64,000 nt of DNA from Candidatus Accumulibacter aalborgensis (GTDB taxonomy: Bacteria; Pseudomonadota; Gammaproteobacteria; Burkholderiales; Rhodocyclaceae). The stretch is from contig NZ_FLQX01000111.1 in NCBI RefSeq assembly GCF_900089955.1, forward strand, positions 1 to 64,000, written 5' to 3'. Under the pieces are notes generated by a model. That model did not search any database and had not been told where the DNA came from. It was given only the letters and a program-made list of their open reading frames with translations. Positions 59,529-63,669 of this stretch are shown here, in pieces (within the stretch, counting starts at the first letter, position 1; each line of letters opens with the position of its first letter). A program made the position numbers and the translations under genes.

Positions 59529-60257
59529 TCACAGCAGCTCCAATTCGTCGATCAGGCTGTCTCGCCGGGCCTGAATCTTGAGTTGTCCGAATTGGGCGCG
59601 GAAGCTATCCAGATCACCGAATACGCGCTGGTCAACAAAGCTGACCAGCCCGTACAGTTCCAGCAAGGAATTCTGGAGCGGCGTTGCCGTCAGCAAGACC
59701 TTGTGCGGCAGCCGCAGCGCATCGCGCAGGATGCGGGCTGTCTTGTTCTCTGGCTTATAGACGTTGCGCAGGCGGTGCGCTTCGTCGACGACCACCAAGT
59801 CCCACGGCACCGACTGCACGTCCTTGGCTTTGCCTGCCGCGAATTGGTAGGAGCAGATGAGTACGGTGGCGCTATTGCCTGCAACGTCGAACGGGTTGGT
59901 GGCACCATCCTTGATGGCTTGGCGGTAGGACTTGGCTTCAAGCAGACTGCTGGCGATAGCGAACTTGTCGGCCAGTTCCTGATGCCACTGCTTGCGCAAG
60001 TTAGCCGGGGTGGTGACCAGAATGCGGCGTTTGCGCCCGGCCCATTTCTGCGTGATCAGCAAGCCGGCCTCGATGGTTTTGCCGAGGCCGACCTCGTCGG
60101 CAAGGATGGCACCCTTGGACAGCGGGTTGCTCGTCGCGAACAGCGCCGCGTCGATCTGGTGCGGGTTCAAGTCGACTTGAGCATCCAGCAGCGCGCCGGC
60201 CATGCGGTCCATGGAATTGGACGCGGCACGGCGGGTCAATTGATGCGCGAAATACGC
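59529..60257 (-). pseudogene. SNF2/DEAD-type helicase fragment, truncated at both ends
   Basis: About 240 codons of an SNF2-family ATPase. The leading text YFAHQLTRRAASNSMDRM and VDLNPHQIDAALFA is the usual N-terminal part. Walker A is LADEVGLGKTIEAGLLITQK, motif Ia ILVTTPANLRKQWHQEL, Walker B VVVDEAHRLRNVYKP and motif III LLTATPLQNSLLELYGLVSF. Full-length relatives exceed 900 residues. After SFRAQFGQLKI the frame reads QARRDSLIDELELL and stops, which looks like a piece from further down the protein joined by deletion. At the other end the family frame is legible up to position 60257, one base from a 22-bp inverted repeat, and no start codon remains. Confidence 0.85.
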
Positions 60258-60258
60258 T

Positions 60259-60324
60259 AACGAGGCTCCGCCTCAGACCGACAAGTGGTATTGGGGAGTT
60301 GCCGGTCTGAGGCGGAGCCTCGTT
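60259..60324. repeat. perfect 22-bp inverted repeat at the helicase breakpoint
   Basis: The arm at 60259-60280 (starting AACGAGGCTCCGCCTCAGAC) is exactly complementary to 60303-60324, with a 22-base spacer. Each arm holds a smaller GAGGC/GCCTC hairpin, so a long hairpin or two short ones can form. It lies between the severed helicase frame and the orphan gene, as a mobile-element terminus would. No second copy was seen on the far side of the orphan gene. Confidence 0.8.
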
Positions 60325-60451
60325 TGATAGTGGCGAGTTGTCGGACGATAGGTATGAAGTGGCCCCGGTCGAGCCGGCTGGGAGTAACCCAGATGAGTCG
60401 GAGGTCAAAGCCTCAATGGGTCAGAAGACCCGTGGACGACCGGAGCCGAAG

Positions 60452-62062
60452 ATGAAACTACCACAAAGTGTGGGCGAAGTTCTACGGGAACATGTGGTGC
60501 TTGAGAACGAGAGCATCGACCGGATGTACCTGAACGTCTATGTTCCACAATTGCAGCGGATCGGTGGCGTGGTGTGGTATCTGCGGGGGCATTTGGGGCA
60601 GCGCTTTGCCTCGACGGTTGCTATAGCGCCAAAGACCGAACAGTTCGTGGCGGCGATCGAAAAGTTTGCGAAACGCCGTGGCGTCGACGTCGTGAGTTTC
60701 AGGAAAGATCAACGCAAAGACGACGTCACGCAGGAGTATCTGGCGAAGTTCGAGGCCGATGAAGGAGTGCTGTACATCGGGCGGGCGCAAGAGAAGGCGC
60801 GCGTGGTGCGCACCGAGAAGCGGCACAGCACGATCACGGGAGGCACCTACCCATGGGTGGTGGATGGCAGCGCGTTCGTCAATTACTACTACTTTTACTG
60901 TGTGGACGAAGACTTTGGTCCCTTCTTCCTGAAGTTCTGCTCGTACTTTCCGTACAACGCCAAGCTCTGCCTCAACGGGAACGAGTACGCCAAGTGCCAA
61001 TTGCGCAAACAGGGCATCGCCTTCCAGGCGCTGGACAATGGCATCTTGTCGTGCGCGGACCCCAAAGCGCTCCAACGCATCTGCGATGAACTGGACGCCA
61101 CGAAGATCGACGGCCTGCTGCGCAAATGGCTGGACCGTTTGCCGCATCCGTTCGACGACAAAGATCGCGCCGCCGGTTATCGCTACGAACTGTCGATCCT
61201 GCAAGCCGAGTTTGCCTTGACCCAAGTCCTTGATCATCCGGTGACCGGCCGGGTGTTCTTCGAGCAGGTCATCCGCGAAAATCTGGATATTGGCCGTCCG
61301 GATCAAGTGCAACTGATCTTCAATCGCCGTGTAACCCGGCGGACGCCTGGGAGGTTTCGTACCCGGGTGATCACCGAAGGGGTCACCCCTTCGTTGCATG
61401 TGGACTACAAGCGTTCACGGATCAAACAGTATCACAAGGAAAGTCAGGCCTTGCGCACCGAAACCACCATCAACGACACCCGCGACTTCGGCATTGGTCG
61501 CCTCCTGCATAACCTGCCCGCACTGCGTCGCGTGGGCTTCGCCGCCAACCGGCGGTTATTGGAAGTGGAGCGGGTCAGCCATGATTGCGCATTGGGCGAG
61601 GAGGCTTTCCAGGACTTGCAACATCCTCGCCAGATAGCAGGCCAGCGGGTGCCGGCACTGCGCTTCGCCGATCCACAGGTGCAAGCTCTCCTGCATGCTC
61701 TGTTGATGTTCGTCTTTCTCCCTCAGGGGTTCACTAACAAGGAACTCCGCCAAGTATTCGCTGTGCTTCTCGGGAAATGTTCCGGTGAGATCAAGCCCGG
61801 TCGCATGAGCTATGAGCTTCGCCGCTTGCGCTTGCACGGCTTGATCGAGAGGATACCGAAATCACATCGCTATCGACTCACCGAACATGGACTGCGAACA
61901 GCCATGTTCTACACCCGCGTGTACGCGCGCGTCCTGCGTCCGGGTCTCGCCATTCTGAGTGCACACGACGACAAGACATCACCATCCCCTCTGCATCGCA
62001 CTTTCCAGGCCGCCGAGAAAGCCGTCCATTCATGGTGCGACAACGCCAAAATCGCCGCATAA
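60452..62062 (+). CDS. large protein of unknown function, mobile-element-like context
   Basis: About 536 residues from ATG 60452 (MKLPQSVGEVLREHVVLENE), which follows GGAG at good spacing; the frame is open back to a TTG at 60338. I remember similar hypothetical proteins in unrelated bacteria but no named domain. Visible blocks are YYYFYCVDEDFGPFFLKFCS with YFPYNAKLCLNGNEYAK, YRYELSILQAEFALTQVLD, and FRTRVITEGVTPSLHVDYK followed by RIKQYHKESQALRTETTIND. The C-terminal 100 residues (ELRQVFAVLLGKC, SYELRRLRLHGLIERIPKSH, RYRLTEHGLRTAMF) look like a winged helix. No signal peptide or membrane helix is seen. The gene sits beside a 22-bp inverted repeat in a broken helicase gene. A DNA-handling role is possible but unproven. 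Confidence 0.75.
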   Translation: MKLPQSVGEVLREHVVLENESIDRMYLNVYVPQLQRIGGVVWYLRGHLGQRFASTVAIAPKTEQFVAAIEKFAKRRGVDVVSFRKDQRKDDVTQEYLAKFEADEGVLYIGRAQEKARVVRTEKRHSTITGGTYPWVVDGSAFVNYYYFYCVDEDFGPFFLKFCSYFPYNAKLCLNGNEYAKCQLRKQGIAFQALDNGILSCADPKALQRICDELDATKIDGLLRKWLDRLPHPFDDKDRAAGYRYELSILQAEFALTQVLDHPVTGRVFFEQVIRENLDIGRPDQVQLIFNRRVTRRTPGRFRTRVITEGVTPSLHVDYKRSRIKQYHKESQALRTETTINDTRDFGIGRLLHNLPALRRVGFAANRRLLEVERVSHDCALGEEAFQDLQHPRQIAGQRVPALRFADPQVQALLHALLMFVFLPQGFTNKELRQVFAVLLGKCSGEIKPGRMSYELRRLRLHGLIERIPKSHRYRLTEHGLRTAMFYTRVYARVLRPGLAILSAHDDKTSPSPLHRTFQAAEKAVHSWCDNAKIAA

Positions 62063-62091
62063 CACAATCTTGACTCAACACAATTTGACTC
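62061..62091. repeat. imperfect 15-16-bp tandem repeat at the orphan gene end
   Basis: AACACAATCTTGACTC (62061-62076) and AACACAATTTGACTC (62077-62091) differ by one base plus an indel and begin inside the stop codon of the orphan gene. It could mark the element's right end or be recent slippage. Confidence 0.5.
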
Positions 62092-62193
62092 AACCGCTTC
62101 AAGATTTCTCACCCAAGGAATCTAGCTGGTGCGGACTGTAATTCATCGTTCGTCACTTCTTCCCTGTATGACAAATAGTACTATGGCGTTGGC

Positions 62194-62583
62194 CTATCGT
62201 CCCCAATGGCCTTCAAAGTCGAAGGAAAGTTGCCGCTGATGGCGGATGGCGAGGAGGTAAATCGTTCCGCCAGTCAGCGCGTAGAGCAGCAGGTAGTCCT
62301 TGAGGACGTATTCGCGCAATGCGTCCATGTCCTGCGTCAGCGCCGATAACTTTGCGCTGAGCGTTGCCAGTGCATTGATGGTCTCGACCGAGCGCGGTTG
62401 GCGGGCCAAAAATGGCCGCCCCATTTCGGGGAAGCGCTCAAGGTTGGGAGTCACCGTTTCAAGCAGTTCATCCAACAAGCCGTCGAAGGCTTGCGGTGCT
62501 TCCTCTTCGGTCAGGAAAAGTTCAATGTCTTCGAGGTTACGCTCGAAATTCGCGGTGAATTTGACGGCAGGTTTTTTCGCCAT
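62194..62583 (-). CDS. RelE/ParE-family toxin
   Basis: A 129-residue protein. The start MAKKPAVKFTANFERNLEDI is typical of ParE/RelE members, as is the end YLLLYALTGGTIYLLAIRHQ followed by RQLSFDFEGHW (the last strands with basic residues). It is somewhat longer than the roughly 95-residue norm owing to a middle helix (SVETINALATLSAKLSALTQ). ATG 62583 is chosen over the longer frame, which enters the upstream gene. It is the last gene of a three-gene cassette, two bases after the middle gene. Confidence 0.8.
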   Translation of the reverse strand: MAKKPAVKFTANFERNLEDIELFLTEEEAPQAFDGLLDELLETVTPNLERFPEMGRPFLARQPRSVETINALATLSAKLSALTQDMDALREYVLKDYLLLYALTGGTIYLLAIRHQRQLSFDFEGHWGR

Positions 62584-62585
62584 GC

Positions 62586-62933
62586 TTAATGTCGTCCCTC
62601 GTCGGCATCCCACGTTGTTCGGTAAGCATAGACGTGGGACGCCGTCGCTACTGGGTCAATGTCCCAATAGTGGCGACACAGCCGACGGTAGAGGTCGAGC
62701 GCAGGCTCAAAGCAGCAAAAGCTGAGCAGGTCATCGAGGGTTTGGTCGATCTGCCGCGTGTCCTGGCTGCGGGTGCGCAAGATCCCTTCAACGAGGGGCG
62801 TGTACTCGTTCACCGCCTGTTGATGGATGACGTCGATTTCGGCGGCAAGCTGGGCGATGCTATTGACGTGCGGATCAACTCGCACGGCAACAGCCCCTGA
62901 ATACGGTTCTGAGAACCCGGCGATCTCGACCAA
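62586..62933 (-). CDS. unknown protein between antitoxin and toxin genes
   Basis: Up to 115 residues from a TTG that directly abuts the antitoxin stop. The N-terminal third is irregular; the rest is helical with LVEGILRTRSQDTRQIDQTL then DDLLSFCCFEPALDLYRRLC and RHYWDIDPVATASHVYAYR. Proteins with this LYRRLCRHYWDIDP pattern recur beside Phd-type antitoxins in other Proteobacteria as I recall, but I know no assigned function. Its fixed place between antitoxin and toxin suggests a chaperone, second antitoxin or regulator. Confidence 0.7.
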   Translation of the reverse strand: MVEIAGFSEPYSGAVAVRVDPHVNSIAQLAAEIDVIHQQAVNEYTPLVEGILRTRSQDTRQIDQTLDDLLSFCCFEPALDLYRRLCRHYWDIDPVATASHVYAYRTTWDADEGRH

Positions 62934-63224
62934 TTACGCACTACGCCGACGCTTGAGGGCGGTAATGGCGCTGCGGGCATCCTTCACTTTGCCAGCGACA
63001 ATGTCGTCGAGTCCCTTGGCAGCCTCGTCGATCAGCAGCAGGTGAATTCGCTCGCGCTCCAACTGGTGGTAGTAATCCAGACGCCTGGCGTCGATCAGGG
63101 CGATGTAACTCTCGCCGTTTCTGGTGATGATTTTCTCGGCGCCGCCCCTGACCTCTTCAGCCAGTTCGGAGAAATTCGCTCGGGCGTTCGAGAGGGGAAT
63201 AACGTCGCTTGCGCAAATACCCAT
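62934..63224 (-). CDS. Phd/YefM-family antitoxin
   Basis: A 96-residue protein with the family N-terminal DNA-binding domain: IPLSNARANFSELAEEVRGG, then EKIITRNGESYIALIDARRL. A helical tail (ERERIHLLLIDEAAKGLDDI) would bind the toxin. ATG 63224 has AGGAGG upstream. A YefM-type TGTACA palindrome lies 37 bp before it, as expected for autoregulation. Confidence 0.87.
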   Translation of the reverse strand: MGICASDVIPLSNARANFSELAEEVRGGAEKIITRNGESYIALIDARRLDYYHQLERERIHLLLIDEAAKGLDDIVAGKVKDARSAITALKRRRSA

Positions 63225-63256
63225 GATGGCCTCCTGTGCCGCACAAGGTGTGCAGT

Positions 63257-63294
63257 ATGTTGTACATAATACGCTTTGGCGGTCAGAGGTGAAA
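63257..63294 (-). promoter_or_regulatory. promoter and TGTACA operator of the antitoxin cassette
   Basis: Read leftward: TTTCAC (63289-63294), a 17-base spacer, TATTAT (63266-63271), then the inverted repeat ATGT-ACA-ACAT (63257-63267), whose core is TGTACA. YefM proteins are known to bind TGTACA palindromes, so self-repression is likely. Confidence 0.6.
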
Positions 63295-63669
63295 GCAGAA
63301 CCTGCGCGGCTCTTCGGAGTGTTTGTCCGTGAAATGATTGAATGCAGACTGCCCGCGATAGGGCGGTCCAGCCCGGCGAAGACAACAATCAGCGGCGTGT
63401 CGTCACTGTTGCGGTTGGGTGCGGCTATTGTGAGCCACGGTTTGTGTATAGTGGTCACCAGATGTGGGAAAATACAAAACTAGCCATTAGGTTTAAGCGC
63501 GTCTTTCACCCGAAAAGTGCTGGGCGGTTTCGGCAATAGTCGATGACGGTAAGCGGTCATCAAAAAGTCTTCCGTGCTTCCGTTCCCGGTTTTCAAAGGC
63601 CTGGAGCCTTCTGAAGATCGGAGGACTTATCCGAGAGCGCTTTAAGAGGCAAAGGCTTTCCGCAATGCC
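63295..63669. other. 375-bp gap between the antitoxin cassette and the DOMON-like gene
   Basis: No supported gene. The leftward frame over 63493-63930 is antisense to the DOMON-like gene and shows no family motif. A possible rightward -10 (TATAGT near 63447) lacks a matching -35. Confidence 0.4.

What the first reader, a model, noticed from the sequence alone, without database searches (positions are those of the whole stretch)
59529..62091. Unclassified mobile element: inverted repeat plus orphan gene at a helicase breakpoint
The SNF2 helicase frame is legible up to 60257 and a perfect 22-bp inverted repeat starts at 60259. A single large gene of unknown family follows, with a C-terminal winged-helix-like region and a tandem repeat at its stop. 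No transposase of a known class is visible. This fits one terminus of a single-gene element carrying its own hairpin.
Basis: partly seen in the sequence, partly recalled or inferred. Interest (0 to 1): 0.72.

Follow-up and report, generated by a model that had tools for sequence, protein, structure and literature searches.

The report
New insertion sequence with unknown transposase
A jumping gene of an unnamed type has landed inside a bacterial helicase gene; its exact ends, its empty target site and many relatives can be shown, but the enzyme that moves it belongs to no family in the libraries searched.

Summary
The element is 60260-62124 (1,865 bp), in a CTAG site at codon 8 of a DrmD-like SNF2 helicase gene; three relatives carry the same CTAG uninterrupted. 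Eight other copies share the left end and eight the right end (CTA|G), with unrelated flanks. A distant branch (about 23% protein identity) has three 99.7% identical 1.64-kb copies in one closed genome; 26 of 26 of its well-matched left ends follow CCT(A/G).

The branches share one end anatomy: CTA, two bases, a small covarying hairpin, no terminal inverted repeats, CTA again at the right end.

The 536-aa protein has no significant Pfam, NCBIfam, PHROG or PDB match; relatives show a weak C-terminal winged helix. Its conserved residues (QxE, KxYxK, RxE) follow the order of the Rep_trans active site, but profile comparison was not significant. I propose a tyrosine nicking transposase working by IS200/IS605-like logic; that step is inferred.

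The parts
60260..62124 (+). the whole element, 1,865 bp, counted with the left CTA as target and the right CTA as the element's end
   Evidence: shared ends in relatives, empty site in relatives
60257..60259 (+). CTA of the target, left junction
   Evidence: empty site ACGCTAGCTGG in G007, G016 and G041
60262..60274 (+). left-end hairpin GAGGC-TCC-GCCTC, two bases inside the CTA
   Evidence: same anatomy in 14 aligned left ends; stem covaries
60277..60289 (+). second small left-end hairpin (predicted only)
   Evidence: DNA fold; not tested for covariation
   Evidence: absent from the seven relatives aligned
60360..60448 (+). structured 5' leader: closing stem with three inner hairpins
   Evidence: similar shape in two of three Rhodococcus copies folded
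60452..62062 (+). orphan gene, transposase candidate, 536 aa (the frame is open from 60338 with a TTG start)
   Evidence: no curated family matched
61202..61222 (+). Q289-x-E291-x-A-x-T, candidate motif I (residue numbers from the TTG start at 60338)
   Evidence: Q and E invariant in 19 of 19 members
61424..61438 (+). K363-x-Y365-x-K367, candidate catalytic tyrosine motif
   Evidence: K363 and Y365 in 19 of 19, K367 in 18 of 19
61454..61462 (+). R373-x-E375, candidate metal-binding motif
   Evidence: 19 of 19
61595..61927 (+). C-terminal winged-helix-like domain
   Evidence: weak HTH hits in relatives and the best-modelled stretch of the model
62061..62094 (+). 15-bp tandem repeat at the stop, seen only in the window and in L002
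62063..62124 (+). right end, closing with AATCTA
   Evidence: CTA also closes the 15 group C right ends
59529..60259 (-). DrmD-like SNF2 helicase, downstream part (interrupted by the element; also cut short at 59529)
62125..62146 (-). first codons of the same helicase (MNYSPHQL), split off by the element

Best explanation
It is an autonomous one-gene insertion sequence of an unclassified family. Shown: both ends, insertion into CTAG inside a helicase gene, no terminal inverted repeats, CTA at both junctions, a covarying hairpin two bases inside the left junction, recent multiplication of a related branch. Inferred: the 536-aa protein is the transposase. It recognises the hairpin, nicks one strand 3' of CTA at both ends through tyrosine Y365 in a Rep_trans-like active site (E291 and E375 plus D61 or D190 holding the metal), releases the element as a circle and rejoins it 3' of a new CTA. 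This is the logic of IS200/IS605 with a different enzyme. The structured leader in front of the gene most likely dampens its expression. I put the mobile-element part at about 0.95 and the tyrosine, single-strand part at about 0.5.
For: Shared ends with unrelated flanks. Empty site with one CTAG in G007, G016 and G041 and the split helicase reading frame. Second right end in the same genome (L002, 99% over 124 bp, different right flank). Distant branch: three 1.64-kb copies 99.7% identical in G009. Its left ends, searched with a pattern that does not contain CTA, gave 26 matches with at most 1 mismatch in 5 of 8 genomes, and all 26 follow CCT(A/G). Left hairpin: paired in 55 of 55 cells of 11 distinct rows; covariation score 0.378 against a shuffled mean of 0.074, 0 of 500 shuffles as high. 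Motif order QxE...KxYxK...RxE as in Rep_trans (PMC4797284 and PMC6499999, passages seen; alignment). A strict pattern for it matched 16 of 19 family members, 8 of 13 Rep_trans members and 0 of 404 background frames of 350 aa or more; the pattern was written after seeing the family.
Against: Profile comparison with 13 Rep_trans proteins was not significant: best score 15.2, reached by 4 of 60 column shuffles; the untrimmed comparison gave only a trivial C-terminal match. Pfam Rep_trans matched none of the 11 members scanned at E up to 1. The structure model was poor (mean pLDDT 44). No strand bias could be read from seven copies in G009. No right-end hairpin is clearly shared. Left-end fold energies are not exceptional in A and B (z -0.9 to -1.3; C -3.0), and the best fold of the Rhodococcus end L031 uses an overlapping stem instead. 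Two hairpin measures were not exceptional: pairs changed on both sides (149 of 500 shuffles) and further pair types (97 of 500). A 3-bp duplication of CTA is not strictly excluded: the case against it rests on one copy, L034 (CCA left, CTA right), which could also be a later mutation.
Confidence: 0.55

Rival explanations
1. Site-specific recombinase type: the element moves as a double-stranded circle with a 3-bp CTA crossover, through an unrecognised serine, tyrosine or DEDD recombinase, as IS607 or IS110 elements do.
For: CTA at both junctions and in the empty site, and asymmetric ends, fit a shared core. Groups A and B have a structured stretch in front of the gene.
Against: No serine recombinase, tyrosine recombinase or DEDD transposase domain in the Pfam or NCBIfam scans. 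A long RNA guide is unlikely: near-identical G009 copies sit in flanks that share only CCTA|A, and group C has under 80 nt in front of the gene. Guide pairing itself was not computed.
Confidence: 0.25
2. DDE-type cut-and-paste element with a 3-bp CTA target duplication and degenerate ends.
For: CTA on both sides of the filled site, once in the empty site.
Against: The two ends show no inverted similarity by eye in the aligned copies. L034 has CCA on the left and CTA on the right. No DDE family matched.
Confidence: 0.1
3. The orphan gene is a passenger, and the ends are moved in trans by another transposase.
For: No direct test of the protein's activity exists; several copies have broken genes.
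Against: The gene, whole or broken, fills the 1.5-2.0 kb between the ends in the copies measured, and branches about 23% identical in protein keep the same left-end anatomy.
Confidence: 0.07

Closest known systems
IS200/IS605 family (TnpA Y1, HUH)
   Same: small hairpin near the end, no terminal inverted repeats, insertion 3' of a short fixed sequence, right end closing with a similar short sequence, exact empty site. IS200/IS605 features from PMC6006769 (passages); lack of inverted repeats and of target duplication in that family is recalled.
   Different: protein about 3.5 times longer than TnpA (536 against about 150 aa), no conserved HxH, a winged helix at the C terminus; only two bases lie between the target CTA and the hairpin foot, so there is no room there for a 4-nt guide; right-end hairpin unclear
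Rep_trans / MOBT nicking enzymes (PF02486)
   Same: order of RxDxAxD / RxYxK / RxE motifs resembles QxExSxD / KxYxK / RxE
   Different: no significant sequence or profile match; the members described in the passages seen are plasmid and phage replication proteins and relaxases, not transposases
IS110/IS1111 (DEDD, seekRNA)
   Same: asymmetric ends, structured noncoding stretch in groups A and B (compare PMC11187229, passages)
   Different: no DEDD domain found; near-identical copies sit in targets that share only a few bases
REP / TnpA-REP
   Same: short conserved sequence at the foot of a hairpin
   Different: REPs carry GT[AG]G and are separate from the gene (PMC6006769, passages); here the gene lies inside the element

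Membership tests
IS200/IS605 | HUH Y1 transposase | tested here: not met
   no Pfam or NCBIfam match; no conserved HxH among 19 aligned members
IS200/IS605 | hairpin at the left end | tested here: met
   perfect hairpin one or two bases from the junction in 23 of 28 loci examined; covarying stem in 14 aligned ends
IS200/IS605 | hairpin at the right end | tested here: inconclusive
   predicted hairpins differ between groups and are weak
IS200/IS605 | insertion 3' of a fixed short sequence, no terminal inverted repeats | tested here: met
   CCT(A/G) before 26 of 26 group C left ends with at most 1 mismatch; ends unrelated to each other
IS200/IS605 | single-stranded circular intermediate | not testable with these tools
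   needs biochemistry; strand bias of 7 copies uninformative
Rep_trans (PF02486) | profile match above the curated cut-off | tested here: not met
   none in 11 members scanned; hhalign not significant
Rep_trans (PF02486) | ordered acidic, RxYxK and RxE motifs | tested here: met
   QxE, KxYxK, RxE in the same order; 16 of 19 fit a strict pattern, 0 of 404 background frames; motif level only, pattern made after the fact
Rep_trans (PF02486) | fold of the catalytic domain (tyrosine and metal residues on a beta sheet) | tested here: inconclusive
   model mean pLDDT 44
IS110/IS1111 | DEDD transposase | tested here: not met
   no such domain
DDE insertion sequences | terminal inverted repeats | tested here: not met
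   left and right ends dissimilar

The most novel reading that the evidence does not exclude
A new class of transposase: a non-HUH, Rep_trans-like tyrosine nuclease that moves a hairpin-ended single-gene element as single-stranded DNA into CTA targets, spread across Betaproteobacteria and Actinomycetota (Rhodococcus, Mycobacterium), with a structured RNA leader in two branches.
Probability: 0.4. Interest if true: 0.85.

Novelty: new variant of a known kind. Interest (0 to 1): 0.66.

Why it matters
Insertion sequences are mostly found through known transposases, so a family annotated as 'hypothetical protein' (one member as 'ArsR family transcriptional regulator') stays invisible. This one interrupts a gene, is present in many copies in some genomes, and has defined ends and an empty site, so the enzyme can be tested directly. 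If the tyrosine proves catalytic outside the HUH fold, it would add a chemistry to the list of transposases.

Tried and rejected
Viral contigs: of five scans, four found no relative and one found two partial loci, L071 and L072. Profile comparison with Rep_trans: not significant, full or trimmed. L171 as a query found no phage relatives. Strand bias: GC skew from 40 stretches of 20 kb of G009 does not place the origin well enough for 7 copies. RNA guide idea: set aside because near-identical copies have different flanks. Rfam: nothing above a gathering score; three weaker hits, the best (mir-1269, E 0.0041, 33 bits against 100) lies on the private inverted repeat and is taken as chance. Phage records: no match for the window protein. 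One end tested (L126) was given with wrong coordinates and missed the left end; it is not counted.

Literature: nine searches listed no paper that, by title and start of abstract, describes this family. They cover open-licence PMC papers only, and ISfinder could not be searched. So 'unclassified' means not in the libraries and listings seen here.

Circularity mended: the first left-end search of group C had CTA in its pattern. It was repeated without CTA: the same 26 ends came back with at most 1 mismatch, all after CCT(A/G); four further matches with 3 mismatches do not follow CTA (one, L255, looks like a decayed left end; the reversed control gave 2 matches).

Full report
The perfect 22-nt inverted repeat (60259-60280 / 60303-60324) is real and not expected by chance, the SNF2 helicase frame runs into it, one large ORF follows, and a 15-bp tandem repeat lies at its stop. 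The window protein has no Pfam or PDB match and only weak ones elsewhere: NCBIfam E 0.18, PHROGs E 0.19 and 0.32, PADLOC E 0.0048 over the winged-helix stretch. Scanning 11 family members adds winged-helix hits (best 3.3e-5) and a scatter of other weak hits that agree on nothing.

Ends. Relatives at 55-91% protein identity (best segment) occur in the closed genome G009, on Caballeronia, Paraburkholderia and Variovorax plasmids, and in Paraburkholderia, Caballeronia and uncultured contigs. Aligned with the window, they agree up to one sharp boundary on each side and not beyond it. The left end is CTA|(A/G)CGAGGC-TCC-GCCTC in the window and eight relatives (L003, L034, L029, L036, L030, L037, L035, L127); exceptions are CCA for CTA in L034, CTG in L037 and one changed loop base in L036. 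The right end is CTA|G in the window and eight others (L003, L034, L029, L036, L030, L127, L035, L002). For L037 no right end was found; the contig of L035 begins at the end itself, so it has no left flank.

Empty site. With the window's flanks as queries, relatives of the same genus and family give a continuous sequence. G007, G016 and G041 read ACGCTAGCTGG where the window has ACGCTA|element|GCTGG; G021 and G027 read CGAGC at that place, also without an element. In reading frame, the window has MNYSPHQL right of the element and AYFAHQLTRR left of it; four relatives read M(S/T/N)YSPHQLAYFAHQLTRR. The helicase, closest to DISARM DrmD (213 bits, below the whole-protein cut-off because it is short), is also cut short at 59529, so the gene is broken twice.

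Recent movement. The own genome holds a second right end on a short contig (L002), 99% identical over 124 bp, with another flank. A distant branch (group C, about 23% protein identity) has three copies 99.7% identical over 1,637-1,638 bp in G009 with different flanks, out of six left ends there. In eight genomes searched for its left end with a pattern free of CTA, five held 26 ends with at most 1 mismatch: G005 12, G009 6, G013 4, G024 3, G026 1. All 26 follow CCT(A/G); further out the bases are mixed. Four further matches with 3 mismatches do not follow CTA; the reversed control gave 2. Of 15 right ends read, all close with CTA, followed by A in 13, T in 1 and G in 1; in seven of the 20 loci given no right end was read.

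Shared anatomy. Of 28 loci examined, 23 have a perfect hairpin one or two bases from the left junction: groups A, B (Rhodococcus), C, E (11-bp stem), L012, L074, L076 and L128. None was found next to a junction in L033, L126, L086, L009 and L015; L126 and L086 have imperfect ones. The junction itself is not CTA in L074 (CCA), L076 (ACA) and L012 (TTA). On a gap-free alignment of 14 left ends chosen for the 5-bp type (11 distinct), the stem is paired in 55 of 55 cells, two pairs change on both sides, and the covariation score of 0.378 was reached by 0 of 500 shuffles; slid registers pair 29-49%. Two other measures in the same call were not exceptional (149 and 97 of 500 shuffles as high), and shuffles do not allow for relatedness. 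Fold energies of the short ends are modest: z -1.3 (window), -0.9 (L029), -1.1 (L031, where an overlapping stem is preferred) and -3.0 (L025). CTA plus one or two bases plus a hairpin of at least 5 bp occurs 82 times in 40 stretches of 20 kb of G009, both strands, 5.1e-5 per base.

The window copy carries an extra inverted left end shortly after the first one, absent from the seven relatives in the alignment. It may have arisen by template switching (inference).

Leader. Groups A and B have about 150-190 nt between left end and gene that fold into a closing stem with inner hairpins. z-scores of ten copies folded range from -1.2 (L129, 26 of 200 shuffles as good, and a different shape) to -5.4 (L036); the window gives -2.3, 6 of 200. 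Covariation within group A is weak: score 0.066 against 0.047 shuffled, 12 of 500 as high. Group C has under 80 nt there, so the leader is not needed for movement in the whole family. A dampening leader is the likeliest role (inference).

Enzyme. In 19 members, Q289, E291, K363, Y365, R373 and E375 are invariant, K367 is 18 of 19, D190 18 of 19 and D61 16 of 16. Rep_trans proteins use R140-x-D142-x-A144-x-D146, R189-x-Y191-x-K193 and R212-x-E214 with D46, the tyrosine on a beta strand and three carboxylates on the metal (PMC4797284, passages; MOBT relaxases, PMC6499999, passages). Order and type agree; spacing differs (tyrosine to RxE glutamate 10 residues here, 23 there). A strict pattern matched 16 of 19 members (not L004, L012, L128), 8 of 13 Rep_trans members (12 of 13 with a looser one) and 0 of 404 background frames, but it was written with the family in view. 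Profile comparison did not confirm kinship. So I claim resemblance of the active site, not membership.

Mechanism. The features fit IS200/IS605 logic (PMC6006769, passages): hairpin, fixed flanking sequence, matching last bases, exact empty site. Differences: a larger protein without a conserved HUH, only two bases between target and hairpin, and an unclear right hairpin. A double-strand recombinase with a CTA core remains the main rival.

Spread. Among 200 relatives, own genome included, the window protein matches in 16, often only in pieces; the group C profile matches in 15 of 28 genomes of the genus; the family profile in 13 of 398 of the phylum, own included. On plasmids, 25 of 72,556 records match, 18 of them Rhodococcus, 8 with one place covering at least 80% of the protein.

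Noticed in passing
62194-63458 (minus strand): Toxin-antitoxin-like genes right beside the element: ParE-like (E 8.4e-10), a small gene of unknown family, and a Phd/YefM antitoxin (E 1.8e-8).
   Followed up: no
L031, L130, L222 and L032: Three Rhodococcus copies share the left flank AAGTGCCGTTGCAGTACTA, and a similar stretch recurs at L032:8360-8401: they may target the end of another repeat.
   Followed up: partly
L033 / L128 (Mycobacterium riyadhense plasmid): Two family members of different branches lie side by side in the same orientation.
   Followed up: no
L123 and L160 (G009): Two group C copies are themselves interrupted, with 3-nt and 8-nt overlaps at the breaks, as expected for target duplications of other insertion sequences.
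   Followed up: partly
L002 (own genome, contig C89, 61-184): A second right end of the element, 99% identical over 124 bp, joined to unrelated sequence inside the gene and to another right flank.
   Followed up: partly
L071 (IMG/VR contig): A broken family member next to a gene that reads like a DNA cytosine methyltransferase (from its translation, no family search run) on a contig filed as viral.
   Followed up: no
L255 (G005, contig C304): A sequence that looks like a decayed group C left end without CTA before it.
   Followed up: no
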